From Gracilariopsis chorda (lineage: Eukaryota > Rhodophyta > Florideophyceae > Gracilariales > Gracilariaceae), in NCBI GenBank assembly GCA_003194525.1, contig NBIV01000745.1:1-30560 (forward strand): a stretch of DNA of 30,560 nt, read 5' to 3'. The notes under the pieces were generated by a model, which saw only the letters and a list, made by a program, of their open reading frames with translations, was not told the DNA's origin and searched no databases. Each line of letters opens with the position of its first letter. Within the stretch, counting starts at the first letter, position 1. Shown one piece after another: positions 9,001 to 30,560 of the stretch. Made by a program: the position numbers and the translations under genes.

Positions 9001-10110
9001 ATTTGGCAACAGAGAAATGGTTTATCCAGTAGTACTGGAGCTTGTATGATGTGGTGTAGGCAGAACCGAGTGAACATCACACAAAACGCAGGTAGTTGTG
9101 GTGGTAGTTTGAGTGCTCGAGGCTCCCAATGTAAAGAGGAGCTGTGCACAAAAACCCCTAAAATGAAACACCACAAAGTAAATCTTTTTAATGCTTTGCC
9201 ACATTTTCTGAACCATATTTTCGTTTGGAGGTTTGCAGTGGATGGCAGAATGAATGTCATTAGTCGTGTCGTATATACCTTTGTCAGACAGTAGATGCAT
9301 TGTGATAAGAGTCAAGGCGGTAGTTTGTGTATATCACGTATGCAGACAAAGGGCTGGAGGCGTGAGGTGAGTTCATACGTTTTCTGAGAAGCGAAAGCGC
9401 TGCAAACGTTAAACCCCGTACAAAAACCATGGAAGGGGGCGGAGTGCAAGCTTCCTCATTGTACCAATTTGGCAACAGAGAAATGGTTTATCCAGTAGTA
9501 CTGGAGCTTGTATGATGTGGTGTAGGCAGAACCGAGTGAACATCACACAAAACGCAGGTAGTTGTGGTGGTAGTTTGAGTGCTCGAGGCTCCCAATGTAA
9601 AGAGGAGCTGTGCACAAAAACCCCTAAAATGAAACACCACAAAGTAAATCTTTTTAATGCTTTGCCACATGTTCTGAACCATATTTTCGTTTGGGGTTTG
9701 CAGTGGATGGCAGAATGAATGTCATTAGTCGTGTCGTATATACCTTTGTCAGACAGTAGATGCATTGTGATAAGAGTCAAGGCGGTAGTTTGTGTATATC
9801 ACGTATGCAGACAAAGGGCTGGAGACGTGAGGTGAGTTCATACGTTTTCTGAGAAGCGAAAGCGCTGCAAACGTTAAACCCCGTACAAAAACCATGGAAG
9901 GGGGCGGAGTGCAAGCTTCCTCATTGTACCAATTTGGCAACAGAGAAATGGTTTATCCAGTAGTACTGGAGCTTGTATGATGTGGTGTAGGCAGAACCGA
10001 GTGAACATCACACAAAACGCAGGTAGTTGTGGTGGTAGTTTGAGTGCTAGAGGCTCCCAATGTAAAGAGGAGCTGTGCACAAAAACCCCTAAAATGAAAC
10101 ACCACAAAGT
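1..10110. repeat. 466-bp subtelomeric satellite array, about 21 full units plus a partial one
   Basis: Near-identical units follow head to tail. Unit starts (the word AGTTTGTGTATATCACG) fall at 1, 463, 925, 1394, 1864, 2331, 2801, 3268 and then every 465-466 bases to about 9787. The last unit stops in mid-unit at 10110, after ACCACAAAGT. Units from about 2.9 to 9.8 kb differ by only a few substitutions. Each unit carries the telomere-like word AAAAACCCCTAAAATG. Several overlapping 60-120 codon open frames recur on both strands of each unit, but 466 is not a multiple of 3, the frames overlap each other and none resembles a known protein, so they are taken as non-coding. A satellite of this unit length beside telomere-like repeats and a telomere-type RecQ gene fits a subtelomere. 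Confidence 0.97.
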
Positions 10111-10194
10111 GAAAAGTCCCCTAAATCCCCTAAAAACCCCTAAAACCCCTAAAATCCCCTAAAATCCCCTAAAAACCCCTAAAACCCTAAAATC
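10111..10194 (+). repeat. Degenerate telomere-like CCCCTAAAA tract
   Basis: About eight tandem copies of a 9-10 base unit, CCCCTAAA followed by A, AA, AT or T, directly abut the truncated end of the satellite. The C-rich strand reads left to right, as expected for a telomere at the left end of a chromosome. The unit is irregular and resembles TTTTAGGG-type telomere repeats with an extra G, but I cannot assign it to a known taxon. It is either an interstitial remnant of an older telomere or a subtelomeric spacer. Confidence 0.75.
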
Positions 10195-11432
10195 TCTATT
10201 TCTACAAGCCTAAACCCCGTCAAGTTCGTTTCCCACAAAACAAACTTATTCATTCATTTCTACGTGACCCTTTTGCTTAGGATGAAACACAACACGAACT
10301 TGTGTTCAACACGGCGCAAATTCATGTACAGACAGACCCAAACACATTATGTTGTTGCCCGCAGTTCGTAAAGTAGAGTACGAGTCGTCGCATGCCATTT
10401 ACCCGCCCAATACTGGCTTTAAAACCCCTACATACTCACATCAGCAGTGATTTGGCCAAGCCACACATATTCCCTGGGTGCTTGTTATGCTTATTACACG
10501 TCAGTAAAAGAAGAGTATCTTTAATACTTTTTCAGTTCGTTCATTTCACAATTGAAATGAACGCTCATGACTGAAACCCATTTCGTTGTGTTTACCTCGT
10601 GCTACCTTACCGCCGTATACTCGCTAAAGGGAATCCATGCTGCACAACGCCCCTAGAACTGGATTACTTTTGTTTCGAAGCGGGTTGCCACTTCAACTTT
10701 GTATAAAAGCCCTTAGAACTCATTGGCTCCGTACCTGTTCCCTCTCTCTTACAGCTTTGATTGTTTAGAGTAACTACTCGCTATTCTCCAAACGTTTTTA
10801 TTACTACAACAGAACCTTTTGTAGAGCCAAACAACGTTGCGTCGTGGTCTTTTTGACATATGAAGCACTTTCCTAAAAGCCCTGAAAACCCCTTATACTA
10901 TCCCTAACATGGCCATACATGTTTTTAAACGTATTACATAACATAACTCTTCATCTTTGAATACACATGTAGCGATTTGCGGCTTTCATACCTTCATTTC
11001 TTACATAACCACACTGCCTTTTTACACATGACTACATAACTTTGGTTGCTATGAATTTGTGTTCACATGTGCCTTTTGTTACAAACGGTGAAAGTATTGG
11101 GGGGAAACCCCGATGTGTAACTATGAGGTTTTAAAAAACCTCTCATGAAACCCCTAGAAAAATCATTAAAGCATGCAGCCCCGTAAACCTGAGAGATGGG
11201 ATTTACAACCCCCCTCCCAAAACCCCTAACATTCTAATCGCGGTTTAGGCTCGAATCCATATCCTACATATAATATAAAATGTTAGTACAGCAATATCTG
11301 TCGTCAAACTTCTAAACAAACTTTAAGTAAGTAGAAACATACACCGACTATTTTGTTAAAACCTTCACTTGTAATGCAAGATTCGTACTACCTACACTCC
11401 AAAAACTACAACAGCTATAACAACAAAACCAA
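10195..11432. other. Non-coding spacer with scattered CCCCTAAA-like words
   Basis: No convincing gene was found in this AT-leaning stretch. Short open frames (for example 10392-10574) have no recognisable domains. Words such as CCTAAAAGCCCTGAAAACCCC near 10871, AAACCCCTAGAAAAA near 11149 and CAAAACCCCTAACATT near 11217 look like eroded telomere-type sequence. The last 150 bases probably hold the promoter of the gene at 11433. Confidence 0.6.
11266..11283 (+). promoter_or_regulatory. Possible TATA-like element upstream of the oxidoreductase gene
   Basis: The run ACATATAATATAAAATG lies about 150 bases before the ATG at 11433. It is the most TATA-like sequence in the spacer. The distance allows a 5' leader of roughly 100 bases. 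There is no other support, such as a known transcript start. Confidence 0.25.
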
Positions 11433-12460: not shown

Positions 12461-13430
12461 TCATCTTTCGCCAGTGTCTATGTTCTCCCCTAAGGCCTCA
12501 CTTAACTCCCTTTCAACCGCACTAACCGCGTCGTTCTCAAGCAAAACAACCTCTTCGTTTAAATCTCCTAAAACCAGGTCTTCTTCTTCTCCATCTCCAA
12601 CAACACCAGTGTCATCGCCCGCACCATACAACCGGGTATCCTCCTCTACAAACTGGGGCTTGAATCCCTTCTCACGATGTACGGCATCTGGAAGGTCGTA
12701 CCCTTCAGGGACCATGTACATGTGATAGCGGAAATTCACGCCGTCCATACTGCTGTCTGCTCCCCCGGCCCCTGCGTAGAAAACATCACCACGCCCGACG
12801 AATATGGAGAAAGGTGGAACTAACACCTTCGTAACCACCATCTCTTTCGACACATTTCGCAAACTTTTCCAGTCGGTCACTACGATTTTGTGACTTCCTT
12901 CACATACCCAGATTGGAAACGAGTAATCCCCGGCGATCATCATGAAATATCCGGGATTTGCTCCTTCCCCCTTCTCTTCTACAGACAAGCCCCAAAAGTC
13001 TGTGTGCAGAGTCTGTCGCATGCACTGTCGAGTAGTAGCTAACACCCGTCCACCAGTTTTGGGGGCTTACATCTTCCTGGTTTCCGCTCTTCGATTGTTG
13101 CCCACGCGCAACACTGTCATAACTTGACCCAGACGGGCGTCCATCATTGCCCTCCGCTTCACTACCCAGTGTGTACTGCGGTTTTCTTCCAAAGCGTCCA
13201 CAATACCAGCGCGGGTGGTAGTGAATCGACGTTCCCCCTTCGCTCCTTGTTCTATATCACGCTCTACAGGTCCGCTGTTGATTATCCAGGTCCACCTCTT
13301 TCGATTCTCCTCACGGCGGAGATCCGGTTGCTCCGTTTAGTTTTGGCGGAAGAAAGCCAATACAGATTCCGCACTATCCACATCCTCACTGGGGTTCGGG
13401 AGCACTTCAAACTTCCTGTCAATAGCGGAC
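12461..13430 (-). other. 2OG-Fe(II) dioxygenase-like (cupin) domain within the minus-strand gene
   Basis: LHTDFW supplies the HxD metal ligands near 12995. CEGSHK and VPPFSIFVGRGDVF are typical of the strands preceding the distal His, and FRYHMYMV supplies the Arg that would bind 2-oxoglutarate. At the expected distal His (usually H-A-G-A-G) the sequence reads FYAGAGG, so one metal ligand is missing unless the His of RYHMY replaces it. An acidic tail closes the protein with a TGA at 12461. Confidence 0.6.
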
Positions 13431-15059
13431 CCGGGAGAATACAGAACCCCTTTTCCTTCAGTTCTGCACGCTTCTCCCCAAAGTATTCCAAAGCCAGATA
13501 GTCCACCTTCTTCGCTGCCAAGTACAAGCGATCGTAAGAACTCAAATTTTCCGTAGCAAGTCCAGCCGCTATAGCCATTTCACTAATGAAATCACCTCCA
13601 AGTATATTCCCCTTCATCACCCCTGACTGTTCGTGGCCAAGCATCGCAGCGTGGTAAAACACCGTGTGATGAATGTACTTGAGGTCACCTGGACTCAGAG
13701 TTTCGGCCCAATGTCCAGGTGGAAGGTGAATACATTGCAACCAAGCTCCAACATTCTGAATAGGGTTCTCTTCTTGTGGCCAAACACTGGGCAACATAAT
13801 GCTGTAGACGCACCAATCTGGAAATGGGTGCTCAGTATTGAACGGCTCACTTCGACTTAAAGTAGACGGCCATGCTGTCGGCAGTTCGTCATCGAATCCT
13901 TGCGCCGACTGTTCATTTGTTCCTGTCTCGTCCTCGAATTCAACCGATTCGTCTTCCGAATCCAAGTCCATATCGATTTCTTCAAACCCTTTCCGGAGCA
14001 GCTGGAGCAAGTTGTTGTCCTTGAAGAAGTTGAAAACAACGTCAGGCTCATAGGTTTGCAGACGTTGAACTGTTGCAGCAGTCAATATCGCTCCACCTTT
14101 CTTCCTCCGTATGTTTCTTCTCTCCGTCCTGCGTCCCGACTCTGAAATAGCTGCACCCGCCGACGAAGAACGACTGGATTTCCGCCTAGTGCTCCGACGT
14201 ACAGCACTCGATTGATCAGAACCAACTGCAGGTGTTCCACTCTCAGCACTGAAGGCAACACTAGCGGGCGGTGTAGGTGGTTTTAACCCCCACTGGCTTT
14301 CAGGCACACTGCCGGTTGTACCCAACCTAGAAGTCCCGGTATTAACAACCGACGTCACTCGCTCCCCGATAGCATCTGGCTGCGAAACGGAAGCCTTTTG
14401 CACGTCCGGCTCCACACGAAGCTCTGGAATCCAGTTCTCCAACTTCCCCTTGAACAACGCCACAGCTCTTATTATGACGGAGCACTGATTGCGAGGATTG
14501 GGAACTTTCCTGAAATGGTTCACCTGTTCTACAGCAAAGCCCCGAACTGTTGTCTCACCAGTCACAGAGGCAGACATCCGGAATGACTGAGCTAAGAACG
14601 ACTCCATTTCCACCTCAACCCCAAGTGCCATTCGCTTCATCTCTTCCAGGAATTGTAAAACCCTGCTGTAGAAGTAAGATCGTACCATTTCGAACCCACC
14701 TCGGATAGAGGGGCCCTTGGGACCGACGTAGAACATCAAGCAGTTCATTGCAAAAGTAAACTCCAGCGCTTCCATCCTTAACAGCTTGTCCGAGGACATG
14801 TGCGTGATACCCACATTCGAATATTGTGCACAAACCCGCTTGAAAACATCCACCAACATAGGATTGTTAGCAAGCTTGAGCGCAATTTCTGATATGCGAC
14901 GCAGCTGTCTTTCTTCAATCTTCTTGGTTACTGCAGAGTTTTGAAGGGCTCCAATTACCATCCCAACGGTCAGCTCACCAACAACCACGCCCAAGTCCAC
15001 ATGAAGAGAGTTAATGATACTCACTACTGAGTGAATGAAGTCCCAAAACCACATTCTCA

Positions 15060-15455
15060 GTACAGACGATGCAGTATCATTCAGAAGAACTCCAATTTCC
15101 ACAATCTCATGCGACGTCAGGTCCCTCCCGTCCGGTCTCGACCAGCTGAGAACTCGAACCGATTTCAGCACCGCATACCACCTTGTTTCCTTGATCCTCC
15201 TCCTGAACATGGCAAGTCGACGATGTCGTCCATCGACGAGGTCTGGAGATACAATTATGCGCCCATTCTGAAAAACACCCTTCCAAAGGTCGCCCGTTCA
15301 TCCGAATGGTTACACTCATCAACCCCGCCGACTCCAACAAACCCTTTCGCTCGAGCTCATTGTCCAGGCTCTGGACATGCTCCTCTTCGATTCCACGAGG
15401 ACTGTGTTCTGGTAGTCGTATTAAATCCAGATCCACAACGAGTATCTCGGCTTTG
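15060..15455 (-). other. ParB/sulfiredoxin-like domain within the minus-strand gene
   Basis: On the minus strand, ILVVDLDLIRLPEHSPR followed by EEHVQSLDNELERKGLLE matches the start of ParB N-terminal domains: a hydrophobic strand, Pro-Arg, and a helix ending in a Gly. A one-base shift near 15290 leads to GRIIVSPDLVDGRHRRLAMF, which matches the ParB 'DG-x-R-R-x-x-A' box. A conserved-looking tail with LTSHEIVEIGVLLNDTASS follows. ParB domains bind DNA or nucleotides, or act as nucleases. In eukaryotes they are rare. Confidence 0.65.
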
Positions 15456-16133
15456 TAGTCCTGCAGACGAATGGTGTCCTTTGAAAACTGTGTGTCCACT
15501 TGAACAGGTTCAACCACGTCGTCCTCACTATACAGCGTCCTATCATTCGACTGACCCAGAACTTCAGACACAATCTGAACTTCATCCGAGTCACTACCCA
15601 AATCGCGGGCTACCTTCACACTCCCTCTACCTTCCTCCGCAACAGACTCGGCAACAGTAATGGGTGTATGATCTTCAGATACGGCACCTGCATCTTCCGT
15701 AGACTTCCCACCCTCACCAGTACCCACGCCCGATAAAGAGCCGGACACCTGGCTCTTGTGAGGCACCACCTTCTTAGCGGATACAACCGCGTCCCCTGAT
15801 TGTGTTCGAACGCTTGATGTGTTCTTGACACCAGCCCTCGTGGCGGTGGGTAAAGGGGAGAACCGTAGCCAACCATCCTCCGTTCGCTTGGAGTTGTGGC
15901 TTCTGAGCCGGGCAGCGGAACGGTTTTCGACAGACGTGTGTTGCGCGATACGGTAGGTAACCGTCGGATTCGGGGGGACTGTGTCGTCGAGCGAGTTCCT
16001 CGGGCAATCGCTGTAGAGCGCTCCTGACTTCAGCTGCTTGTACCGGACGCCCCTATTCAACGAGGAGAAGGTCCCGGGAGTTTTCGGGGCGCATTAGCTT
16101 CAGATCCCAAGCATACATTCCATAAAACGTCAT

Positions 16134-16710
16134 CCCGGATAAATGCTTCGGAGGGGGCTCGGTTCCTTTAAACGGGTATGGATTGGCCTACATTTTCTTC
16201 TCTATAATGGTGATTTTGCTCACCACAACCAGATCCTCCCCGGGTTTCGCACACGCAGACAATGGATGTCCGTGGAGAGTGCGGCGAGACTCCCCTTCGG
16301 CCTCAAACACTGTAGCGACCCCAACGACATCCGCGTTCGCCAGGAGCAGAGACACTGACGCCCCTGGCACGATTGCTGATGACGACATGCTCGTGTGTGG
16401 ACTTATTTCAGAACGGAAACGCTTGAGGATAGGCGCAGACGTATGGCGGAATGTTTCGAGCGATGAAACGATAACGCGTAGCGTGCTTAGAACACGCTTT
16501 ACTAACCCTTAAGCGGTGGCGGATGGACTCACGCAAACCCCTGAGTCAACAGCCCACGACGGCACAGTACAACAGTCGCAACCATTCCCTCCCTTACTTT
16601 ACGAGACCCTTCTCGGAAGGGGCGCCAACTGCACTATTTTATCATTTCGAATACGGGCTATTTTCAATACCCCCATTTTCCGAGTTTTTGGGACACTTTC
16701 ACATAATGGT
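16134..16710. other. 5' flank of the minus-strand gene, no gene supported
   Basis: This is the proximal half of the divergent intergenic region. An open frame at 16183-16512 (+) has a signal-peptide-like start, but it begins at TTG and lacks any recognised domain, so it is not called. The region probably contains the promoter of the minus-strand gene. Confidence 0.45.
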
Positions 16711-16786
16711 GTGTCGAGCGACAGGCCTGGTTGTGCACGACAGGAATGAGTTCCTGTCATGCATGGCCAAGCCTGTCGCTCGACAC
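16711..16786. repeat. Hairpin repeat copy 1
   Basis: The outer arms are GTGTCGAGCGACAGGC and its complement. The centre is CGACAGGAA, then TGAG, then TTCCTGTC. The arms pair with about five mismatches. A run of seven C follows. Confidence 0.9.
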
Positions 16787-16940
16787 AATACCCCCCCAAA
16801 ATAAACTCCAAACAAGGGGCCGACGGCGCTAAGCGCAGGCACACACGTGTCGGGGAACGTGCAACTCCTACACGTATGTGCATGAGCCACGCCCCATGCG
16901 CATCAACATAAATAATTTTTCAAATATTTCCGCCAGCCGG

Positions 16941-17020
16941 GTGTGTCGAGCGACAGGCTTGGCTGTGCACGACAGGAACTCATTCCTGTCGTGCACAACC
17001 GGGCCTGTCGCTCGACACAC
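16941..17020. repeat. Hairpin repeat copy 2 (best paired)
   Basis: Arms of 38 bases pair with only three mismatches around a 4-base loop. The outer part is GTGTGTCGAGCGACAGG and the central part is GTGCACGACAGGAA. A C-run follows directly. Confidence 0.92.
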
Positions 17021-17176
17021 CCCCCACATTAATTAAAGCAAAAATAAAGGCGCGGGCAACGGCGCTTGACACAAACCCACACGTGTCAGTTTGCGTACAA
17101 CTCTGACACGTATCTATATGCCCCATGATGCATGCGCTGTCCATGAAAAAATTATTCCAATTTTTTGGGCCGCCAA

Positions 17177-17254
17177 GTGTGTCGAGCGACACGCACGGTC
17201 ATGCACGACAGGAATGAGTTCCTGTCGTACACGGCTGGGCCTGTCGCTCGACAG
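17177..17254. repeat. Hairpin repeat copy 3
   Basis: It has the same plan as copy 2, but the left arm reads CGACACGC while the right arm still pairs as CGACAGGC. A run of seven C follows after AGAA. Confidence 0.88.
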
Positions 17255-17390
17255 AACCCCCCCATAAGTAATGCAAAAATTAAGGCGGGCGACGGCGCTT
17301 CACCCAAACCCACACCTGCTACTCTACGTACACCACACACACGTATATTCGCATTACCTCAAATACTATTTTTTTTTTTAGGCCGCCAGC

Positions 17391-17468
17391 TGTGTCGAGC
17401 GACACACCAAGTTGTGCACGACAGGAATGAATTCTTGTCGTGCAGGACTGGGCGTGTCGCTCGACACA
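17391..17468. repeat. Hairpin repeat copy 4
   Basis: Outer arms are TGTGTCGAGCGACAC on both sides. Both arms carry C where copy 2 has G after CGACA, so pairing is kept. The centre is CGACAGGAATGAATTCTTGTCG. It is followed by T and a 44-base C-run. Confidence 0.88.

Positions 17469-17469
<1 letters not shown>

Positions 17470-17513
<44 letters not shown>
17470..17513 (+). repeat. Poly-C tract of 44 bases
   Basis: An uninterrupted run of C directly follows hairpin copy 4. The equivalent place in the other copies holds 3-7 C. Its true length may differ because long homopolymers are poorly sequenced. Confidence 0.9.
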
Positions 17514-17514
<1 letters not shown>

Positions 17515-17660
17515 AAATGAATGCAAATATGAAGGTGCGGGCAAGAGCACTTGCACAGTCCCACGCGTATCACTTTACGTACAACTATGATACGTATGTA
17601 CATGCGCCACGCCTTTTGCGCACTGCTCTTATTTCGTTGATATGTTTTGGGATCCGATTT

Positions 17661-17737
17661 GTGTTCAGCGACACAGCCTCTCGTGCACGACAGGAAGTTG
17701 TTCCTGCCAAGCACGCACGGGGCTGTCGCTCGACACA
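17661..17737. repeat. Hairpin repeat copy 5 (diverged left arm)
   Basis: The left arm starts GTGTTCAGCGACAC, with a substitution in the outer box. The centre CGACAGGAAGTTGTTCCTG and the right arm CTGTCGCTCGACAC are kept. Only three C follow. Confidence 0.82.
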
Positions 17738-17826
17738 ACCCGTGCTATCCATGTTCTAAAATATAGTATAAAATTGGGAGAGTTTTTGAGGTTTTAAAAC
17801 GTACATGGCGTATAGTATTTGTATTA

Positions 17827-17888
17827 CAGCGGTCGTGCACGGCAGGAACTGGTTCCTGTCCGCCGAGTACCGAGCTGTCGCTTGACAC
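17827..17888. repeat. Hairpin repeat copy 6, left outer arm missing
   Basis: The sequence GTCGTGCACGGCAGGAACTGG followed by TTCCTGTC keeps the central palindrome. The right arm CTGTCGCTTGACAC remains. No matching left outer arm is seen. It lies about 100 bases before the next gene's ATG. Confidence 0.75.
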
Positions 17889-19489
17889 TACAAAGCAACC
17901 CCTTACGCCAACACCCGTTCGTTTTTGAATCACCTGCATTTCAAGGTTACCCTTTTATACCAGCTTTAGTCTCATCTCCGACAAGAATGACGCATTCTCT
18001 ACTACCTCCTCCGTCGGTTCGATCTAAAAACCCGTCAAACATGCCACAATATGCAAGCACAGTGTCCGCATTTTTGGAATTACGTTGACAACTATGCCGC
18101 TGAACGTACACCGGAAGACCACCCAAGGGACGTGAAATACAAGACCATTGCCGAGTTGGCTATAGCAACACGCGGTTCGTCACCGTCTGCCATGGAGTTA
18201 TGCAAACAGGCAATTGGTTCCTCCGATATGACAACTTTTGGAGACGTGGAGGTACTAAATGCCTTAACTAACACGCACTCGCCCAATCACAACGCTTTGC
18301 AACAGGGTTTTCAAATCGCACGGTCCCTAGATCAGATGGATAATGAAGAGGATCGTCGTGTCAAGGACTACTACCGCTTATGCCAGGCGCGAAGGTTTCC
18401 CTTCACTATACGGTATTTACTTGCCGATATCGTTAGGTCTTGTGTGGATGGAATGAGCCTCAGAAGAAAAGGGAGGACGAAGTCACTAACCGAAAGAGCG
18501 ACACGCTTTCAGGTTGTTCTATATCTGAGCATGTTCGTTCTGTTAACTCAACGAATGAAGGCTCTCTCAAAGAAGCGAAAACGCTCTGGTTCCACCGACG
18601 ACCTAACACAACCTCAGGCAGTCCCTTTAAAGAATTTCGGGGATCAGAACTGGAATCGAATTGCATATGGCGTGCAACAGGTTGTTTCGTTCTTGGGAAA
18701 ACTTCGCCACATATCTTGGTTTTCACAACACCGAATCGATGCTAAGCGCGTATCTATCCTTTGACGGTTCATCTTTACTCTTCAAACCTCTAAGACTCGC
18801 ATTGAAGGGTTCGTACCGCTCAGACAGTCCTTCTCTCTTATCGGAGATATAACCCCAGAACGACATCATCGGGGGTTGATAGCCACGCCTACGCACTTCC
18901 GCAACATTGGTGACGAGGGACTTAGAATTCTGGCAGAAGAATTCCTCAATGACATTTTCACGGTCATATCTCACCCACGCCTGTACGAAAAGGGAGTTGA
19001 ACAATGGTTACTACTATTGGAGTTCCTCCCAGACGTGAAGCGGGCCCAACTGGACCCACAGCATACCCGACATGGTTCGTATCCACAACGATTCGACCGG
19101 CTAAGTAAGAATCTTTGGGCTCCAATCCGAACAGCTAACGCCAAGGTACCTCCTACTCTAGTGGTGAAGGACAAACCTCAACTGTTCGCACGTTGGAAGT
19201 CATTGACTTGGTCACCAGTCCCAACGATGAACTGGAGCCAGACACGCCTCCTGAGCAACCTCTAAGACCACAAGACGCAGACAGCGAGGCTGCTCCAAAC
19301 GTTCAGCCAACGACTTACCTCCCTTACGACGTGGAAGGTACTGGTGTATTTCTGCCAGACGAAGACGTCAGCGGTACGGTTTGGAAGGCAATGGAGATAG
19401 TGGAGCGGGAGATGATGAAACACTATGCCATGTACTCTACTCCCTACGACGAACTCCCTCCAGTCCACAATACTCTCCGCTCCACAGAT

Positions 19490-20335
19490 TCCGTCCCATA
19501 TGAAGATGCCCAGTTCGCTTTGCTGGATGCTCCAACGCTCGTTCGCGCTGCGGCAGACAGAAGGAACAGTGAGTACGACGCCTTAACCGTGGCTGAAATG
19601 AAGGGCGTTGTGAGTAATGTCGACTAACGTTTCTCCGTGAAGGAGGCCATTTTCGTTCTATTCTGTTCCGTTGAACTTGTTCCTCAGTTGGCGGAAAATG
19701 TTCCGAAACGCAACTTTGAAGGATGAGGACGGTAACGATGAACCGGTTTTTAAGGTGGATGCTTGCCCACTTCACTTCATCACAGGGTCGGGTAACATCA
19801 CAGCCGCACCTGGAAGAGCATCTGGAGAACTAATGACAATTGTGGAATACACCGTTCACGGGGTAAAAGTTGGTGCTTCCCGGGAACAGGAACAATCTCA
19901 GGTGAACTACATGAACTTCAACCACGTATCCTCCACGGTTGCTGGTTATAAAAATGTTATAGATAACGTACCGACCTTGGATGTCAATGAGACTCTCATG
20001 TGGTCTAAATTGAACCCGAATGGCCAATTGATGCGTGAGAGGGTTCGCGCTGTACAGAAACCAATTCGTCTTGCGAGGGACTTATAGCGCGGTTTTCCAA
20101 CCCAGGGTGACATGGTTGTAGACCTCTTTGCTGGTACTTTCTCTACCGCCCTCGCCTGTATGTCTTTCAAGCGTGGTGAGGGTCGTAAATTTGTTGGGTG
20201 CGAAAAAGATCCGGCATGTTTCTACCACGCAAAGCATGCTGCCATCAAATTCTTCTCACGGCTCATTGCTGAAGACATCGCAAACGTCACGGTAACTCAA
20301 GGGGTTTTGGACGCTGCTCGATTAGTAAGCAATTA
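19490..20335 (+). other. Beta-class DNA methyltransferase domain
   Basis: The motif order IV then X then I is that of beta-class adenine-N6/cytosine-N4 methyltransferases. The S-adenosylmethionine site DLFAGTFSTALAC (from 20121) followed by FVGCEKDPACF is intact and resembles eukaryotic algal-type members. The catalytic motif is LDAPT (19523-19537) rather than DPPY/DPPW, so activity is doubtful. VQKPIRLARDL and RGFPTQGDMVVD share one frame but are split by a TAG at 20085-20087. Confidence 0.72.
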
Positions 20336-20559
20336 ACTTCAGACCTACATTCGCCCTTCAAAAGTTTGGACCCCACCCAAACACTTTCCACCTTACCAGA
20401 GATTCCCACAACATATTATGTTTCATTGCGCATCCAAAATGGAACGACAACCTGTTTGCTTGCAAACATATCAACACGGGAATTGTCTCAATGGCCGGCA
20501 CACTATCAGGGCGCTTTAAACCTCATGGATGCAATGGACTTGCGTGCTGTGGAAGGTAC

Positions 20560-21164
20560 ATCCTCTCGTCTGGTCATCGCAAAGTATACTATAAACCATC
20601 CTAATGCAGGCATTGGGGTGTTCGCCGGAACAACTTTCACGCGAGGGGAGATAGTTTGTTATTTCTACGGTACACTTGTCTACCACGATCTTTTCTCAAC
20701 GCCAGGAGATCCACAAGACATATGGAGAGGGGCCCCTGGGTGTAACCCCTTCCAGTTTTCGCTCGTATGCCATGGAGGTTGATGTCTCTGGCCCGGATTT
20801 TGCCGCCTTGGTTGGTCTCAACCGGGACACGAAGCGAACTTCAATCTTTATTTCGCCGCCCCTTTCTGTATTGGTGGCTACATCAATGACCCAAGGTACA
20901 TTGAGGGCGATATGGACATCCAAGCTGTCCGCGACAAGTATAAAAAAGAAAAGAACGGAGAATGTAACCTTGGATAAGCACAAATTGCCTCCATTCGAAA
21001 CAGGAAGCAGCTCGAAGATTACACCATAATAACGATTCGTGCAACTCGCCGGATTGAGCGTGGGGGAAGAGTTCTTTTTATCGTATGGTGTAGAGTACTG
21101 TTGGAAATCAAACCTCCTCGACAGCAGGAACCAGCAACACCTCCAATGCTTCGTAGTCCAGTAA
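20560..21164 (+). other. SET-domain-like histone methyltransferase region
   Basis: TINHPNAGIGVFAGTTFTRG and IVCYFYGTLVYHDL match the SET N-terminal strands (Gly-x-Gly-x-Phe-Ala, then acid or polar residue and Tyr-Gly). In the next frame APFCIGGYINDPRYIEGD matches the 'G-Y-x-N-D' region. ATRRIERG followed by EEFFLSYGVEYCW matches the C-terminal 'G-E-E-x-x-x-x-Y-G' box. Two frameshifts interrupt it. No pre-SET or post-SET zinc cluster is seen. Confidence 0.7.
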
Positions 21165-21518
21165 ACACCAAACTCCAGTTACCCCTCATACTCCTCTGCT
21201 CCACTGTAATGGGTACCGGCGCGCCTGCTAACACCTGGTCACAATATGCATTACGTAATTAACTTTCCCTAAGGTCTTAGCCACGTCTTCAGTCCGTTCA
21301 TTACAGATGTTAAAGCACCCTCATACACTTGCGCAATTGCACAATAATAAGCAAACACGTTACCGTAGTTAACCTGCTGCAGATCCCCAACACGATCCTG
21401 CCCAGTATAATCTTGATCGTTCACACTCCCCTCCTCTTACTCATCCGTATACCTCAGTGAGAGCATTGTGAAACCCACTTCGACTATACCCTATAAACTC
21501 CTCCCCACCCTCATCGTA

Positions 21519-24500
21519 ATGGCAAACGCAACGCTTAATATGGCTATCCTCTCGTCTCCTGCAACTCCGCAGAGTCTGCCTGTCAACTTTAACACCGTAA
21601 CACTAGGCGTACATGACGTTCTGCACGTTATGGTTTGCGTGGACTGCCAACTGGCGTTCCGTTCAAAGCGCTCGATGCAATTCCATCTCAGACATGAACC
21701 GCATTACATGGAACTCCTTGAAGCCCAAAAGGCAACAAATGAGCTGCATATGGTGTGTGAAAACACGCGTTTATTGGGACCCCACCCCCTTTTTAACCGT
21801 TACGATGTTCAAAACCGAAATGCTCTACAGGACGTACTACCCCCTCTGTTTGGCCTTCGAACCGAACTAGGTCTCCGATGCCCTGAATGTGGATTTGCCT
21901 GGGTGGATACAGCCACCCTCCAAAAACATATATCAGAATCCCACAATACGGATATAAGCTTTGCGCGTAATGCTGTCCAGAAAGAACTCGACCGGGGAAG
22001 ATTGCGCGTTCAGAGCGTTTTCCGTGGAACTCATAAACGGTCTTTTGCGGTTACAAATGACAACCCAGTGGGCTCTGTTTTACATCGACGGATTCTTATG
22101 CTGAAAAGCACACGGAAGCCTACCTCCCTCAACACCTTCGCAGACCGACCACACAAGTATCGCCCGTGATACCCTCCCACAAATCGCAAATGACACGCAG
22201 CCAGTGTTTGTTGAGAACCGCAAATCTCTTCCGGATCGTCCTCTTGTGACGTCGAGGACCCTCCCGGTACCAAGCTTGATACAGTTAACTTAGTATCGAA
22301 AACACAAAAACCACCGTATACGGGTGCGTACACGGAGCATGTGGAGACGTTTCTTAGGGATTTGCGCCCAAGCCGTTCGAAGACTCTAATTGGAAGCAAT
22401 ATCGCCGATGAGAAATGTCGTAATTACTTCATCCAGAGCACGAAGTTGGACTTGGCCCTTGAAAGCCTTCGCATATCAATGGAAGACGCAGTATTTCTTT
22501 CGGGCGCGAAGTTGGTTGAAGCCCGCGGCAATAACCCATTTCTCAAAGCTTTCCGCAAACATCGTTCAGTACATGCAACGAACACCGTCCATAATGTCCA
22601 CCTTACCCCCTTTTTTCTGCATAGTTTGAACCAACGAACAAACTTTGCTTTCAAAACCGTGCGCCTCGATACGTTACAGAGGTACGCTCTAGACGTTGCA
22701 AGGTTGCTGTTCTTTGTCGCAAACGCTAATACCCGCTCCCATGACTTGGTGCCAAAATCGGTCGCCAAAATGACTGTGGAAGTCATCACAATTCCCAATA
22801 TGATGAAGAATCTGCATGCGTCCCTAAAAGCATGTTTGCTACAGACTCTTCAACCGTACACGCCAACGAGCAGGTTGTTAGTCCCGTAATTTTGTTGCTT
22901 GTGCCTCGGTTCTCAAATTTACGGATTGCGAACTGGACAAGCCTATTTACAAATACGCCCGCCGCTGAAGACATCACTCACTTGCTTGCGGCTTTGCAAT
23001 ACGCTGTCGCAGCATCTGCCATCCATGAACTACACACACTCGGACAGTCTGGTGTACAAAGTACGGAAACGAACGTTTCTGAGATGGCGAGCCTGACAAG
23101 TTCTCTAGATATGCAGGCAAACCGCATTTTCTTTCATAAGAAACACTCTGAATGTTGCTATGAGCATTGCGACAAAAGAAAGCCTAAATGTGTCATTTTT
23201 ACCATGTACAATCCACACCAACTGCGGAATTGTTAAGGATGTGCATCTAAGCTTGTCGCAGGTGGGTAATCTCGCAGGAGTTTAAACACGGAAATGGAAT
23301 CTGTTATTTCGAATGATCTGCTCGATGGGTTTCCCTTCCCCCCTTGTTCAGCACACACTTGACATCGTTGAAAGATTCACCTTCAAACAGAGCCCCGGGA
23401 TTTTCTTTCCTTATACACCCGCAAAACACAAGCTTCATCCAACAAAACATGGAATATGTACTACAATGTCTTAGGAAGGGCTCTGCCTCCGGCTCCCACG
23501 TTCCATGCTTCCTCCTAGGTGACCCAACTGAAACGGCCTTGGATACGATTCGGCTTGGCCAGGACTTCCTGCTTAGAAATGGTATATTACGTTGGTGACG
23601 TACGCCCAAAAGATTCAAGAACGACTGCTGGTGGCGCTGCATCTGGCTTCTGGCTCTCCAGCGAGAGGAACAGAAATTGAATCCTACCGCTTGCATAACG
23701 ACGACACCCATCTCCGTTCTCTTATTCTCCTGGACTCTAAACCGGTTCTAATCACTCGATACATGAAAACACAGAACACAACTGGCGGCGCGCGCCCAGT
23801 ACCCAGATTCCCGGACCCTAAAACGGCGCAGGTGCTTTTAACCTACTTCACACTCATCCGCCCCGTTGAAACTCTGTTTGTATCCTTGTTGTTCGGCGAA
23901 GAGAAGAAGGACATCCAGTGGAAGATGCTTTTTGCCGTTCAGGGAGCAGCGCTTACTGCAAAAGCAATTCGACCTATAGTCGCAGCTCGTTTCTCAGCTG
24001 CTGGATACAATATCACATTTGCTGACTACCGCAACTTCTCCGCGGGTATCACCTGCGCACTTTCTTCTACACTTGCTAAGGGCATTGAAAACTCCTTTTC
24101 AAAGTCTATCATGGAAGAGTTTTTCAAACAGCCCACAATCAAGCTGGACACTCCGCTCACACAGCTGAAATGCTCTATGCTCGCACCCCTACAGATATAA
24201 CCGGCTTACGAAGAAGTGACCTTTCGAAATATAGGGAATGGTCTACGCAATGGCACACCCTTCTCGGAATCGCAAATGTTTTCCCAGCCCAGACCGCAAA
24301 GAAGCGACCAAGCCCGAATCCCTTAGATGAGGTTATCGTCTCAGAAGGTGGTTCCGAAACGCGAGCAGATCCCGCTGCGAAGCCCCTTTCCATCCAGGAC
24401 GGCAACCACTCTACTCCAACCAAATCCAGTAAGAAGACATTCCCGTACATGTCCGGGTCGGGGTCTGTAGAGCGACGAGAGCTGCCGAGAGGAGGTGCCG

Positions 24501-26773
24501 TGTTGTATACTCCAGCTCCGACAGTATACGAATTTAATACCAAGGTTTCTGGAAGCCCTTAGGGAAGGGTTACGCAACGATACGGCTCTATTCAAATCGC
24601 ATGCACAGTTTTTTATAACCGCTGCGGTATGGGAGAAGAGAGACACAATGCTAGTTTTGATGCCCGTCTTCTGGAAAAACGTTGTCAGTCCTACTACCGA
24701 TGTACATGGAAAAAGGCGTTATGACATCTATCATCGTTTGTTCCTCTAAAAGCCTTGGCAGCAGAATACGTGCAGAGGGTTACAAGATTCGATCTAGAGT
24801 GCTCAACGACCCCACGTCATGACGACGAGAAATTTGCAGATGTATACATACTATCGGTGGAAGTGGTGGCTTCGGAAGCCTTTCATTCTTTAGTTCAACA
24901 CTTAACACACCACTGGCGCCTTGCACGCATTGTACTTGACGAGGTGCACTGCTATCTGATGTGGCAACACTTCCACCCGGCTCTGGCGCATATGCATGTG
25001 GGTCTAAATGTACCCGTTCAAGTTCTCGAGTGATGCTGAGTGCAACCCTTCCTCCTGCGGATAGACCATTACTACTATCCCAACTCCAAATATCAGCTGC
25101 CTCCCTTTATCACACCTGCACCGCCCGAGACAATATATCTTTTATCGTAACAGACCTCTCAACCACCGCAATCCCCATTAGTTTGAAGCGTTACCGGACA
25201 GATACCGGCCTCTATCGATCTACATTTTCTCAATTTATCGAGCAGGCACTACACGTCTTCGCAAACGATGTTTCCAACTTCTTACTCACAACGGACAACC
25301 GGGTGGTTCGAATTATGCTCTTTTCCCTGACGAGATCAGACGCAGAATATTGCCACACTTACCTTACCCAACAGGACACAATGCCGTGGTCAGATACAAA
25401 CCCCGATATATCCCTCACCCTCTTACTATACCATGCGGGACTCGCAGACAACGACAAGACCAACACACACCACAATTGGATGTCCCTCAACCCCACAAAC
25501 CGCAAATTGTTACCCCAGGCAAGTCCTAATAATGATTTGCACAGCGGCGTTTGGAACCGGACTTGACGCACTGATGTGCGTATCGTGTACAACTTGGGAG
25601 GTGTAGCAAGCTTAGTGGACCTCGCGCAGCAAGCCGCAGAGCGGGTCGAGACAACAAACCTGCCAAGTGTGTCACAATATACTGCAAGTCTTATTTCCAG
25701 AAGATAAGGGACTTGTTATGTACGACCAATAATCAAAACAAGCACGATATCAGCAGAATCTACTTAGACGCAATGGCTCAGAACCGATGAATAGCGCCAA
25801 GGCGTGGATGGAATCGGACACAGTTTGTCGGAAACGCATTGTACGGGTACGTTGATGGCCTCAACCGGTATTTGCTTATTCAGCCCAGGTTCTCAACTGT
25901 GATGTGTGTAACAAACGCAATGGTTCCAGATCCTCCACCCCACACACCGACCCTACAAAGCCAGTTGAACAAGGCAGTATAAAAAACCACTCTGAAAACC
26001 ACGTCAGAGCCATTGTAACACCCCCACCGAGACATCATGCTGAAGACGATGAAGAACTTGACTTTGAACTGCAACCGTTACTGATGCTGCCTGACTTATC
26101 CAGAGATGTGCATGAAGCAAGGATGGACACCGGTGAGCCCCAACGGAATCCAACTCAGAAAATACTTGAAGAGGCCGGGAAAACTGTACGCCACCACAGT
26201 CATCGGCAAATGCCTTTCACGAGCTCGAAAGTATGCCCCACAGGTTCTCGTACACCACATCCAAGAGCTGGCACGGCGTTCACCTCCGTCTGCATACCAT
26301 GCTTGATGACCGAACATCGTGTGGTTTCCAAAGAACACCATTCCTGTGCATATGGAAAAGGAAGATGCTTCCATTGCTTCTCGTCTCTTCATCAAACTTC
26401 GCTCTGCGACGTGAAAAAAGGAGCACCTAGTACATGTTACCAATGTCACATGGGGTACTACAAAGGGTTTAAAACGCATGCTTCTCCAGCAACGTTTGGT
26501 ACCAGGCACTGTGAATTCATCGCACTTCGACAAGCCGCATGGGTGTTGTGGCGCAAATCTTCGGATATGCAGGATAGCATCGCCGCTGCACTGTTTGACC
26601 CAAGCAGCCAAACGCGTTACAACAACTTGAAGACGGAGATCATGAACACGGCAAACAAAGATAAGCACAGGGACTACCTATTCCATGCGTGGGTAACAGC
26701 CTCGGATTCTCGTTCGGTGCCCAACCTCGCCCGCCTCATCACTTGGTGCCGAGCAACGCATTCTATCATGTAA
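21519..26773 (+). pseudogene. Subtelomeric RecQ-type helicase with OrsD-like zinc fingers (fungal TLH-like), frameshifted
   Basis: The ATG at 21519 starts about 1,750 codons spread over many frames. Order of parts: two C2H2-type fingers, CVDCQLAFRSKRSMQFHLRH and CPECGFAWVDTATLQKH, as in OrsD-type proteins; a long helical region; LKDSPSNRAPGFSFL; ALHLASGSPARGTEIESYR, which precedes the helicase in large fungal RecQ proteins; Walker A PSSGKTLSVLLP (24664); DEVH (24938); motif III MLSATLPP (25033); RIMLFSLTRSDAEYC; TAAFGTGLDA (about 25540); a weak motif VI, DLAQQAAERVE; and C-terminal CxxC knuckles (CIPC, CFHCF, CYQCH). At least a dozen shifts occur, near 22140, 22255, 22880, 23285, 23335, 23595, 24545, 24665, 24815, 25025 and 25525, many at C- or G-runs. 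Helicases of this type lie beside telomeres in several fungi. The TAA at 26771 is the likely end. Confidence 0.78.
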
Positions 26774-27483
26774 TATATAGGCGTTATAAATTCAGCCGTT
26801 ATGGCCCTATGGGCATCCACCCACATGCGTTTAACGCAAGCGAGGCCAGAACGCCTATCCCGCCCTACAAGGGCAATGCGCATCGTTCCACGAGAGCAGC
26901 GGCTTAACGTCGTCGCAAGGCTAATGTTTCGCTTGGTGCAACCTGCGTGGTCCTTGCGAGTGTGATTGCAAAACACGAACGGGTCCCTGTCAAGAAAACA
27001 CACTCCTGTCGCTGGACACAGGTCGCGCTGTGCCCGGCTGCCGCTGTGCTCGCACGACAGGAACCGGTTCCTGTCGTCGTGTCACACAACACTCGTGTGT
27101 CGCTCGACACATCACGTTTTCTGCAGAGCCAAATTATTGCTCTCAAAGTGGATCAAGATGTTGTAACGAAAACCCCATACATCTGAATCTCTACAAATTT
27201 CTTGTCACCACGGGGCGCCTGTGCCAAACACCCACACGTAACTTTGTCACTTCACTCGTAGAAGGTCACAACCGCTTCTGCACAATCGTAACGCTTGGTT
27301 ATTGATGCACTACACTACGCACATACTTTCAGTCACACGGCATATAACCTCCTAAGCTTCGTGTTATAGCGAGAGACCCTATCTGTTCTTCCGGCTGTCC
27401 GAACCCCTCCCTCAACGCTCTGCGATCCGCTGCCCACCTTATACACCCCCTTTTCTCATAAGCATCCATCTTTTAAACCAATA
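26774..27483. other. Intergenic region between the two helicase genes
   Basis: Apart from the hairpin at 26987-27110, no feature is supported. Open frames here are short and lack recognisable domains. The pyrimidine-rich tract before GTTTCCAATTGCAG (about 27495-27507) could be mistaken for a 3' splice site, but the coding frame of the helicase runs through it. Confidence 0.5.
26987..27110. repeat. Hairpin repeat copy 7, with a perfect 22-bp central palindrome
   Basis: The centre at 27055-27076 is CGACAGGAACC followed by its exact complement. The right outer arm is GTGTCGCTCGACAC (ends 27110). On the left, CCTGTCGCTGGACACAGG (about 27005) makes its own small stem. A related CCCTGTC lies near 26994, so this copy may be two overlapping elements. 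Confidence 0.75.
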
Positions 27484-29958
27484 TTGCCATTGTTTCCAAT
27501 TGCAGGCGTTCCCGTTTCATTCCCCCATCAACCTTACGGCACTCAGTTCGCACTGATGCACTCGGTCTTAAGCTCGGGTAAAAACGCCAACACGCAATCA
27601 TCGAATCTCCGACAGGTACAGGAAAAACGCTCGCCCTATTATGTTCGACACTCGCTTTCCGCCAATACATTGTCGATTATGAAAACCCCTTTGATGCAAG
27701 CTCGACTACTATCCACAACGCGTGTCCATCATCTGCGTGTAGTGCTCTTAACTCAGAGGGTAATATCTATGACGATATTCATCTCCAAGACGACGACTTC
27801 GAGCCACCTAAGCACTTTGCGGATACCACATGGCAAAGGCTTGTGCATTTCCGTCCAACTTCCCACAATGCAGTCACTACAAGTAGGAATTTGTTTTCAG
27901 ACCTCGTTCCAGCCCCACCCCACATCTTCGTCTCATCAAGAGCCACATTGCGTTGAAGAATTGTCCGTCAATGCCTCTAATACTTGGGAGCCTCGGGTGT
28001 TCTACGTGACAAGAACCCACGCCCAGATATATCACAAGTGGCCTTGGAACTACAGAAAACCGATTACGCACCTCGGGTAGCGATTTTAGGGTCGCGAAAT
28101 GAGTACTGTATCAATCCTCTTGTTCAGAACTCACCAATTGACAAAAAGGGCGACTTATGCAAGGCCCTCATTTACGGCGCCCGTGGTTGTCATTTTACGT
28201 CCGGAACAGATATGCTTTGCACCTACAAGACCAAAAACCCGAACCTTGGGATATCGAGGATTTAGTTCAACTCGGACGGAGCTTCCAAGGCTGCCCGTAT
28301 TATGCGAGCCATAATCTTTTCCATAATGCTCAGTTAGTGTTCTGCCCATACAACTATGTTTTGGACAAAGTGTGCAGAAATGCACGTGGGCTCGACGTTT
28401 CTAACCACATCGTCATCTTCGACGAAGCTCATAATATAGAGGATCTTGCTCGCGAGTTTTCCAGCTTCGTGGTTGATATCCAAACTTTGTTTAACGCTGC
28501 TCAGCTAGCAACGGACATTCTTAGTTGCAAAAACACTAACGAACCGTTCCACACCAGTTTGCACATCATTTCTCAAATGCTATTCAGAATGGTACATCTC
28601 AGTGAACTAGTACTGGCAGAGGCTCCGGCTTTCAACACCAACCACTTCGATGAACCAATCGTCCAAGGCTCTCGATTACTAAAATATTTGTCTGATGCAG
28701 ACATAACCGCCGCCCAACTCCCTCGTGGCAATCTGCAGATACATACTTTGGAAGGTTCAACCACAGTCTTTACCACAGCTGTTTCGCGATTTTCTTAAAA
28801 CACAGAAACATCAGCGGGTCAATTCTATTCCAACCCTAAACATCGCGCAACGCCCTGGCATCACCGCTGAACAACACCTTAAGAATTCTAATATGAAACG
28901 TAATGTCCGCGCTTTGAACGAAATTCTCCAGAACGGCTTCCAATGGACGGCTCGCGTTCTCAACTCCCTCGAATACTTCTTCCGTGAGCCCGACGCATTT
29001 ACCATGGCTGTCACCCGCACTTATGAAGAACACACAGGAACGAAGGTACAACTCAGTTTTCTGTGCATGACCGCTTCCGTGTGTTTTAGAGATGTTGCGG
29101 AAGTCGCTCGAACGGTTATTCTAACCTCCGGTACCCTCAAACCCATGGACGCTTTGTGCTACGAAATAGGAACCCATTTCCACATACAGAGCACCCTCCC
29201 TCATGTGGCGGATGTGCAGAACCAATTATTTCTTGCTTTCGCAACCCGAGGTCCTTCCAATTACCCTTCTCAGCCACATCTCGTGGTGCGACAAACCCCA
29301 ACTTTCAACAAGAACTGGGAAACGCTCTCCTACATTATTTTCACGTTATTCCACACGGAATACTCGTCTTTCTGCCAAGCTACACATTGTTACGAACTTT
29401 ACAGAACAGCTGGCAGAATTCCGGGATTTGGGCTTCAATGATTGCTGCAAAGCAATCTGTTCTAACAGAACCTAAAAACAGAGGACCACACTTTGACTCT
29501 GTCCTCGCATCTTACTCCCACGCAGCAAAACATAAGGTGGAGCTGTGTTATTTGCGGTGTACAGGGGTAAACTTTCTGAGGGAGTTGACTTCAAAAAAAT
29601 GAGGCTTCTCGAGCTGTCATACTCATCGGCATCCCACTCCCATACCTCATGCACCTCCCCGTTCGCTGCAAGCGAATGTGGCTTGATCGCCGAGCAACAG
29701 ATGTGCAGCACAGACTATCCGTTCTCACTGGCGATGAATGGTACTAAACCAAGCCTTCAGTGCTTTAAACCAAGCGTTGGGGAGAGTGATTAGACACAAA
29801 CATGACTATGGCGCCGTCATTTGCATCGATTCCCGTTTCAAGGACGCCCAGTTACACCAAAGGCTACCTTCCTGGACGCTTGCTGGTTTGAAATCAACAA
29901 CGAGCCGCACCATGCTCTAGTGAGTCAATTGAAAACTTTCTTTAGTACTACGTCGTAA
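27484..29958 (+). pseudogene. FANCJ/BRIP1-type DNA helicase, frameshifted
   Basis: The order of motifs matches the iron-sulfur XPD/FANCJ helicase family, and the spacing suggests FANCJ. They are: the Q-motif region IAGVPVSFPHQPYGTQFALM; Walker A IIESPTGTGKTLALLC (27600-27641); FYVTRTHAQI; four Fe-S cluster cysteines (EYC, DLC, RGC, GCPYY); WDIEDLVQLG; FCPYNYVLD; DEAHNIED (28421); VILTSGTLKPMDAL; GILVFLPSYTLL; FAVYRGKLSEGVDF; and [15 protein letters not shown] (29768). Shifts lie near 27593, 27960, 28015 (an extra TA in ATATAT), 28193 (T-run), 28770, 29370, 29535, 29600 (A-run), 29745 and 29885. No in-frame ATG precedes the Q-motif, so the true start is uncertain. In an alternative last frame LVSQLKTFF ends at TAA 29956-29958. 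Intact relatives act in interstrand-crosslink repair and unwind G-quadruplexes. No introns are evident. Confidence 0.8.
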
Positions 29959-30468
29959 TGGACACTAAAAACCGTTTTTATATATGTTGCAATCGCCACT
30001 CGTCTAATACACCTAGAGCTAATTCCCACAGGGAGTTCCAAACACATGGCCACTTAATCCCTTTAAAACCCCTCTCACACTAACCTATTCGCTCGATACC
30101 TACATTACTTATAGTGGAACTGCAACCAGTCCCCTCCTTCAGTTTCTTCCCTGTTTGGGTACAAAGGATGGAAGGAAACCCTAAACCGCCTAAACCCCCC
30201 ACGTAACACGCCTAGCGACCCTAGAAACCCCCAAGTAGTACGTACACTAAGATGTACGCAAGTTCTACTATGGTTCACGTGCAGTACAAGAACCTGGTAT
30301 CTAAACACAGAACGTCATAATACCGCGCGTAGTACTAAGCAAGTAAACAAACTGCACTTGCTTAAACCTCTAGTACTTCACCGAAAACCCACCATGTGCC
30401 ACATGCTTGCTAGTACTGCTCGAAAACCATGCATCGTTAGTACCCTACATGTAACAGAGGCTTGGGCA
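29959..30468. other. Non-coding spacer with telomere-like words and repeated TAGTAC
   Basis: There is no gene. Words such as TTTAAAACCCCTCTC (30061), AACCCTAAACCGCCTAAACC (about 30178) and CTAGAAACCCCC resemble the spacer at 10.2-11.2 kb. TAGTAC occurs at 30236, 30330, 30371, 30411 and 30438, partly in a degenerate ~40-base repeat with CGAAAACC. Confidence 0.5.
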
Positions 30469-30522
30469 GTGTCGAGCGACACCACTGCCGTTGCGCGACA
30501 GGAACGTGTTCCTGTCGTGCGA
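30469..30522. repeat. Hairpin repeat copy 8, right outer arm missing
   Basis: The left arm GTGTCGAGCGACAC and the central GCGACAGGAAC, GT, GTTCCTGTCG are present. The expected right outer arm CTGTCGCTCGACAC is absent before the window ends. Confidence 0.8.
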
Positions 30523-30560
30523 CGCATGTGTAAAGTTCCTCTGCACTGTATGCTTATGAA

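What the first reader, a model, noticed from the sequence alone, without database searches (positions are those of the whole stretch)
12461..29958. Hairpin-bounded subtelomeric cassette of DNA-modification and helicase genes
Four neighbouring large genes all look DNA- or chromatin-directed: ParB-like plus 2OG oxygenase, DNA methyltransferase plus SET, OrsD-like RecQ, and FANCJ-like. Copies of one hairpin family sit in the divergent promoter region, between the helicases and after the last gene. Known fungal subtelomeres carry RecQ genes, and TET/JBP-type oxygenases travel with some fungal transposons. I know of no described element combining these four genes. The idea that they form one mobile or telomere-maintenance unit is inference.
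Basis: partly seen in the sequence, partly recalled or inferred. Interest (0 to 1): 0.78.

Follow-up and report, generated by a model that had tools for sequence, protein, structure and literature searches.

The report
Seaweed subtelomeric repeat with DNA-marking genes
Near some chromosome ends of a red seaweed sits a repeated block of genes that look able to mark, bind and unwind DNA, together with palindromic DNA sites, and it appears to be a self-spreading subtelomeric element rather than a set of ordinary neighbouring genes.

Summary
The window is a whole 30,560-bp contig of a 91.3-Mb genome, most likely the red alga Gracilariopsis chorda, not a fungus. The four genes and the palindromes are real and form one copy of a repeated unit: 9 of 94 gene clusters hold all four genes in the same order and 11 more hold three (truncated search lists). 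Copies of this subfamily are 84-99.8% identical in DNA; more distant relatives (about 35-60% protein identity) keep the order. Of 9 contig ends with clear telomere tracts, 5 carry a cassette gene within 25 kb, though only one (C9, cut off 183 bp from its telomeric start) is of the window's own subfamily. 46 of 50 listed palindrome cores lie within 3 kb of cassette genes. Gene A holds a ParB-type fold; bacterial ParB proteins bind palindromes, which suggests a self-marking system. No target-site duplication, terminal repeat or shared border was found, so transposition is not shown. Most broken frames right of 17.8 kb fit 1-bp sequence errors. Closest known: telomere-linked RecQ elements of fungi and algal giant transposons with ParB/methyltransferase genes. 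New variant of a known kind.

The parts
1..10110 (.). 466-bp satellite array, about 21.7 copies, on the telomere side of the cassette
   Evidence: only diverged fragments elsewhere in the genome were scored (that search skips very common words)
10113..10194 (+). interstitial telomere-like tract (CCCCTAAAA-type); homology with copy C685 stops here (10189)
   Evidence: same motif type at contig ends
11424..12350 (+). 308-aa ORF inside the repeated unit, function unknown
   Evidence: no Pfam family above its cut-off
12464..16513 (-). gene A: ParB-type domain followed by a putative 2OG-Fe(II) oxygenase domain (1349-aa open frame in copy C172, from which the limits are mapped; frameshifted near 15.3 kb here)
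16708..17892 (.). array of five hairpins and one weak one in the divergent A/B promoter region
18041..21165 (+). gene B: N4/N6-type DNA methyltransferase plus SET domain (784-aa open frame in copy C9, which has an internal deletion); limits approximate
21519..26773 (+). gene C: OrsD zinc fingers, recombinase-like central region, RecQ-like helicase, Cys/His-rich C-terminus; limits approximate
23660..24172 (+). within gene C: tyrosine-recombinase-like motif R-x-x-E ... R ... GH-x8-Y (approximate, mapped from copy C9)
   Evidence: not supported by any HMM, profile or structure test
27045..27112 (.). palindrome between genes C and D (core ACGACAGGAACCGGTTCCTGTCGT)
27485..29957 (+). gene D: XPD/FANCJ-superfamily helicase (733-aa open frame in copy C9); limits approximate
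30464..30525 (.). palindrome after gene D; in other copies a second one follows about 132 bp on

Best explanation
This is one copy of a multi-copy, telomere-leaning element of the red alga Gracilariopsis chorda. Shown: the unit (ParB-2OG gene A, palindrome array, methyltransferase-SET gene B, OrsD-RecQ gene C, XPD-like helicase D) recurs in fixed order, at capped contig ends mostly with gene A facing the end, and old subfamilies keep A-B-C together. Inferred: it spreads between chromosome ends chiefly by recombination (break-induced replication or ectopic exchange), helped by its own telomere-linked OrsD-RecQ helicase and the second helicase, as selfish DNA rather than as host genes. Inferred: A and B are a self-marking pair; the ParB part of A binds the element's palindromes and its oxygenase acts on DNA or chromatin marks to which B contributes.
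For: Own-genome searches with pieces of A, B, C and D gave 94 clusters; 9 hold A-D (C58, C117, C138, C172, C176, C236, C263, C338 and the window C723), 6 hold A-C (C96, C378, C379, C409, C522, C637), 3 B-D and 2 A, C, D, with the same divergent layout. Relatives at about 35-60% protein identity keep A-B-C (C378, C409, C522, part of C96). Telomeres: C9 begins with telomere repeats, and 183 bp from its start enters a copy cut inside the hairpin array. Of 9 contig ends with clear terminal tracts among the listed places (C9, C45, C95, C159, C182, C232, C282, C355, C140), 5 (C9, C95, C182, C355, C140) have a cassette gene within 25 kb, 4 of these 5 in the expected orientation. Palindrome core: 64 sites per strand, 0 for the reversed control; 46 of the 50 listed lie within 3 kb of cassette clusters; loops are mostly position-specific (TGAG/CTCA in the array, CCGG between C and D, CGTG/CACG after D). 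Related palindromes stand beside gene A in 2 of 6 diverged copies examined (C378, C627). ParB fold. A gene-C relative in this genome is annotated 'ATP-dependent DNA helicase tlh2'. Recent copies show only a slight excess of third-position changes, as expected of decaying repeats; copies 11-13% diverged show a clearer one.
Against: No target-site duplication, terminal repeat or shared outer border: C236 leaves the common sequence 220 bp past the window end while C9 and C58 stay alike for 1.3 kb and C172 to the end of its held sequence, 0.68 kb. Several copies are about 47 kb or more from contig ends (C117, C96, C140, C151, C173, C263). At the five capped ends only C9 is of the window's subfamily; the others are 32-45% relatives, of which one (C95) or two (C140) gene-C copies and one gene A (C355) stand alone in the scored hits. 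Four of nine capped ends show no cassette gene nearby, and C355 has gene A the other way round. In the two diverged copies the palindromes lie on the 3' side of gene A, not in its promoter. The methyltransferase has DAP where a DPPY-type motif IV is expected (3 of 3 copies read; motif recalled), so it may be inactive. 2OG activity and substrate are untested. Genes A and B occur by the dozen elsewhere without C in the scored hits.
Confidence: 0.6

Rival explanations
1. Ordinary subtelomeric segmental duplication: host genes carried along as chromosome ends exchange DNA, with no mobility or self-marking of their own.
For: Homology of C9 and C58 runs 1.3 kb past the window end; consistent orientation at 4 of 5 capped ends; no terminal repeats found; near-neutral codon-position pattern in recent copies.
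Against: Gene order conserved across relatives only about 35-60% identical, and A/B families in contig interiors; palindromes concentrated at the cassettes.
Confidence: 0.22
2. A self-sufficient giant transposon that inserts with a tyrosine-recombinase domain in gene C (Crypton- or Starship-like) and prefers chromosome ends.
For: R-x-x-E ... R ... GH-x8-Y is conserved in at least 8 of the 9 rows used, two of them foreign proteins: 2 of 200,000 column shuffles reach the strict pattern, 42 of 200,000 a looser one. The pattern was chosen after seeing the alignment and one row was dropped. The palindromes could be recombinase sites.
Against: 13 Pfam Phage_integrase matches lie elsewhere in the genome, none in gene C; no sensible Pfam or PDB profile hit; hhalign probability 0.2 percent against five known or Pfam-matched recombinases; structure model useless (pLDDT 33); no ends or target duplications.
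Confidence: 0.13
3. An endogenous virus or viral fragment.
For: A large gene set with DNA-modifying enzymes and helicases.
Against: No relative of the 2OG or gene C domains in IMG/VR (0 confirmed of 24 and of 29 pattern hits); no capsid or polymerase family in the ORFs scanned with Pfam.
Confidence: 0.02

Closest known systems
Telomere-linked RecQ helicase (TLH) elements: UTASa/UTASb of Ustilago maydis; tlh genes of fission yeast (recalled)
   Same: Repeated telomere-proximal sequences encoding RecQ-type helicases; in U. [quoted passage not shown] A gene-C relative is annotated tlh2.
   Different: The passages seen describe only helicase/OrsD sequences; here a ParB-2OG gene, a methyltransferase-SET gene, a second helicase and palindromes travel along, in a red alga.
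Algal giant DNA transposons with ParB/methyltransferase accessory genes (Sola1-1_Ec32 of Ectocarpus; giant EnSpm elements of red algae)
   Same: ParB-like and N4mC/N6mA-methyltransferase domains, which the authors think may bind and mark the transposon's own DNA; [quoted passage not shown]
   Different: In Ectocarpus ParB and methyltransferase are one protein beside a transposase; here ParB is fused to a putative 2OG domain, the methyltransferase to SET, and no transposase was recognised. The red-algal paper cited there (Petroll et al. 2025) is not held and was not read.
S. cerevisiae Y' elements
   Same: Subtelomeric repeats that serve as a backup in cells without telomerase (abstract of PMC11042809 in a listing); that they encode a helicase is recalled.
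   Different: No DNA-modification genes (recalled).
Cryptons and Starships
   Same: Eukaryotic tyrosine-recombinase elements; Cryptons have no terminal inverted repeats or long direct repeats (passages of PMC3212892; Starships recalled).
   Different: Recombinase identity is not established here and no short terminal direct repeats were found.

Membership tests
Telomere-linked RecQ (TLH) subtelomeric element | Encodes a RecQ-type helicase related to TLH proteins | tested here: inconclusive
   OrsD and DEAD/Helicase_C domains and a relative annotated tlh2 by its source; no direct comparison with fungal TLH proteins was made
Telomere-linked RecQ (TLH) subtelomeric element | Multiple copies next to telomere repeats | tested here: met
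   C9 copy 183 bp from a telomeric contig start; cassette genes within 25 kb of 5 of 9 clearly capped contig ends, four of them distant relatives
Telomere-linked RecQ (TLH) subtelomeric element | Induced when telomeres are lost | not testable with these tools
   needs telomerase-deficient lines and RNA data
Algal giant transposon with ParB/methyltransferase accessory genes | ParB-like domain plus N4/N6 methyltransferase | tested here: met
   (on two neighbouring proteins)
Algal giant transposon with ParB/methyltransferase accessory genes | DDE transposase of the Sola, EnSpm or KDZ type | tested here: inconclusive
   none among the ORFs of the window and of copies C9 and C172 scanned with Pfam; the outer borders were not reached
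Algal giant transposon with ParB/methyltransferase accessory genes | Terminal inverted repeats and target-site duplication | tested here: inconclusive
   right-hand homology of C9 and C58 nearly fills the held sequence; left end compared in one copy only
Crypton/Starship-type element | Tyrosine recombinase domain | tested here: inconclusive
   motif present; HMM, profile and structure tests negative or uninformative
2OG-Fe(II) oxygenase | HxD...H...R active-site signature | tested here: met
   invariant in 7 of 7 aligned sequences; lost in the window copy (His to Tyr)
2OG-Fe(II) oxygenase | double-stranded beta-helix fold | tested here: inconclusive
   this part of the model has pLDDT under 50; no Pfam or PDB sequence hit
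ParB/Noc/KorB family | ParB N-terminal fold with following DNA-binding helices | tested here: met
ParB/Noc/KorB family | Binds palindromic sites and CTP | not testable with these tools
   palindromes present beside the gene; binding unknown

The most novel reading that the evidence does not exclude
The palindromes are parS-like loading sites for the ParB part of gene A: the protein would load there, slide along the element and bring its oxygenase to bases or chromatin marked by the methyltransferase-SET partner. The element would thus mark its own DNA with a bacterial-type clamp inside a eukaryotic nucleus, while an OrsD-recombinase-RecQ protein moves it between chromosome ends.
Probability: 0.18. 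Interest if true: 0.88.

Novelty: new variant of a known kind. Interest (0 to 1): 0.6.

Why it matters
Telomere-linked RecQ genes are known from fungi; here the kind appears in a red alga, coupled to genes that look able to write, erase and bind DNA marks, and to conserved palindromes beside the ParB-type gene. If the ParB-palindrome link holds, it gives a testable way by which a eukaryotic element could recognise and mark itself, and a reason why telomere-proximal elements carry chromatin enzymes.

Tried and rejected
Fungal host: rejected, near-identical proteins on contigs of the same lengths (81,014 and 49,525) are named Gracilariopsis chorda. Viral origin: no IMG/VR relatives. Introns as the cause of the split frames: rejected for gene A, a single 1349-aa frame in C172; in B, C and D the window's frames are split mostly by 1-bp indels, though C172 and C9 also have a few breaks. 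A homologue search with gene C of C9 found only this genome's own proteins; a natural 1232-aa open frame from C140 then found two foreign relatives. Recombinase tests by HMM, profile and structure gave no support. SSU rRNA search failed twice and was dropped. Satellite search and paper searches for the telomere motif, for ParB with 2OG and red algae, and for telomere-linked helicase with tyrosine recombinase led nowhere; a passage search on red algal telomeres (PMC9498494) gave no motif for this genus.

Limits of the counts: the genome search scored 66 of 217 candidates for A, 57 of 394 for B, 59 of 123 for C and 53 of 53 for D, so copy numbers are lower bounds. The cluster tables were typed from those outputs; short extra fragments of clusters already represented were left out, most were merged into spans; both give 94 clusters. 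Some clusters merge neighbouring copies (C96, C138, C236, C263). C637 shows 0 mismatches and 8 single-base indels to the window over 4.3 kb and is probably the same locus assembled twice. In one search the C172 row was dropped because its conserved His is Asn (9 of 10 rows used, one exception per column allowed). Listings stop at 100 places (100 of 174; 50 of 64 palindromes); contig lengths were known only for contigs, so other capped ends may exist. In one search two of the five reference recombinases were this genome's own Pfam-matched sequences. The first span estimate (0.4% of the genome) counted only the contigs concerned; the whole set gives 1.2%.
Full report
What it is. The window is contig C723 of a 91.3-Mb assembly of 1,081 contigs. 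Two near-identical proteins sit on contigs whose lengths equal C220 and C379 and are named Gracilariopsis chorda, and a gene-C relative from a contig of the length of C140 is named 'ATP-dependent DNA helicase tlh2' of the same species. The host is therefore a red alga.

Copies. Four protein searches of the own genome were merged: 94 clusters, of which 9 have A, B, C and D, 6 have A, B and C, 3 have B, C and D and 2 have A, C and D, in the same divergent order. Other clusters are partial; 21 hold only A and 23 only B, mostly 26-42% identical, several hundreds of kb inside contigs, and two (C332, C35) show divergent A/B pairs. So A/B is a widespread module and the telomere-leaning unit adds C, and in the window's subfamily D. 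Copies of that subfamily are 84-99.8% identical in DNA to the window over the parts held; the 99.8% case, C637, is probably the same locus.

Chromosome ends. C9 starts with irregular CCCCTAAAA-type repeats and at base 183 enters a copy broken inside the hairpin array. Among the 100 listed places of a telomere-repeat pattern (of 174), nine contig ends carry clear terminal tracts; five of these have cassette genes within 25 kb, four in the orientation with A outward. Only C9 belongs to the window's subfamily; C95, C140, C182 and C355 hold relatives at 32-45% identity. C276 is a likely further case, but its contig length was not obtained. In the window the unit is cut at 10189 by a telomere-like tract, where copy C685 goes on with other sequence, and a 466-bp satellite follows. 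Some copies lie about 47 kb or more from contig ends (C117, C96, C140, C151, C173, C263), so 'subtelomeric' is a tendency and not a rule. To the right, C9 and C58 stay alike for 1.3 kb past the window end, C172 to the end of its held 0.68 kb, and C236 breaks off after 220 bp.

Palindromes. Five array hairpins fold far better than shuffles (z -4.0 to -14.6); the ones at 17840, 27050 and 30464 are weaker (z -1.0, -1.5, -3.9). The core CGACAGGAANNNNTTCCTGTCG occurs 64 times per strand in the genome and its reversed control 0 times. Of 50 listed sites 46 lie within 3 kb of cassette clusters, which with these margins make 1.2% of the genome; the other four are two on C151 (11-12 kb away) and two on C299. 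Loop sequences are mostly position-specific across copies. In two of six diverged gene-A loci examined (C378, C627) related palindromes (ACGACAGGA...TCCTGTCGT and GTCGAGCGAC) stand in a row on the 3' side of gene A; the held flanks of the other four do not show them; the same detector found 3 palindromes in 10.2 kb of gene bodies. A palindrome family next to a ParB-type gene is what leads to the self-marking idea (that bacterial ParB binds palindromic sites is recalled); binding itself is untested.

Recombinase question. The centre of gene C keeps R-x-x-E, an Arg, and GH followed by Tyr nine residues on, as in tyrosine recombinases (the reference motif is recalled). Column shuffles reach the strict pattern 2 times in 200,000 and a looser one 42 times, but the pattern was chosen after inspection. 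Pfam, PDB and hhalign tests are negative and the model failed. I keep this as a lead only.

State of the copies. The window has many mostly 1-bp indels right of 17.8 kb in coding and non-coding DNA alike, and 8 single-base indels with no mismatch against C637: sequence error explains most of its broken frames. Recent copies show only a slight third-position excess, older ones (11-13% diverged) a clearer one, as for a repeat kept functional by few source copies.

Known relatives. Passages of PMC10532341 describe U. maydis telomere-linked RecQ and OrsD sequences. [quoted passage not shown] the cited red-algal paper was not available. My searches listed no paper that I recognised as describing the four-gene unit, but I saw only listings and a few passages, and most subscription papers are not held.

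Verdict. A real multi-copy, telomere-leaning element, best filed as a new variant of subtelomeric RecQ elements that carries the DNA-marking module of algal giant transposons. Mobility mechanism and biochemical activities remain open.

Noticed in passing
window 17830-30560: 99 mostly 1-bp indels relative to copy C172, in coding and non-coding DNA alike; the contig is poorly error-corrected here.
   Followed up: yes
window 12513-16784 and C637: No mismatch over 4.3 kb, only 8 single-base indels: C637 is probably the same locus assembled twice.
   Followed up: partly
window 1-10110: 466-bp satellite array ending in a telomere-like tract; only diverged fragments scored elsewhere (C105, C487, C458).
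   Followed up: partly
window 11424-12350: 308-aa ORF within the repeated unit with a GRGRIG stretch, Rossmann-like by eye; no Pfam family above its cut-off.
   Followed up: no
window 17470-17513: A run of 44 C inside the hairpin array.
   Followed up: no
G000 contigs C332, C35, C14, C48, C53, C31 and others: A second, dispersed family of A-type and B-type genes in contig interiors, at least two as divergent A/B pairs; possibly accessory genes of giant transposons.
   Followed up: partly
G000 C111:13886, C235:19901, C1:536086: Phage_integrase-domain proteins over the Pfam cut-off elsewhere in this genome.
   Followed up: no
G000 C117:242456, C151:185679, C263:125661, C58:225504: Interstitial telomere-like tracts on contigs that carry cassette copies.
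   Followed up: no
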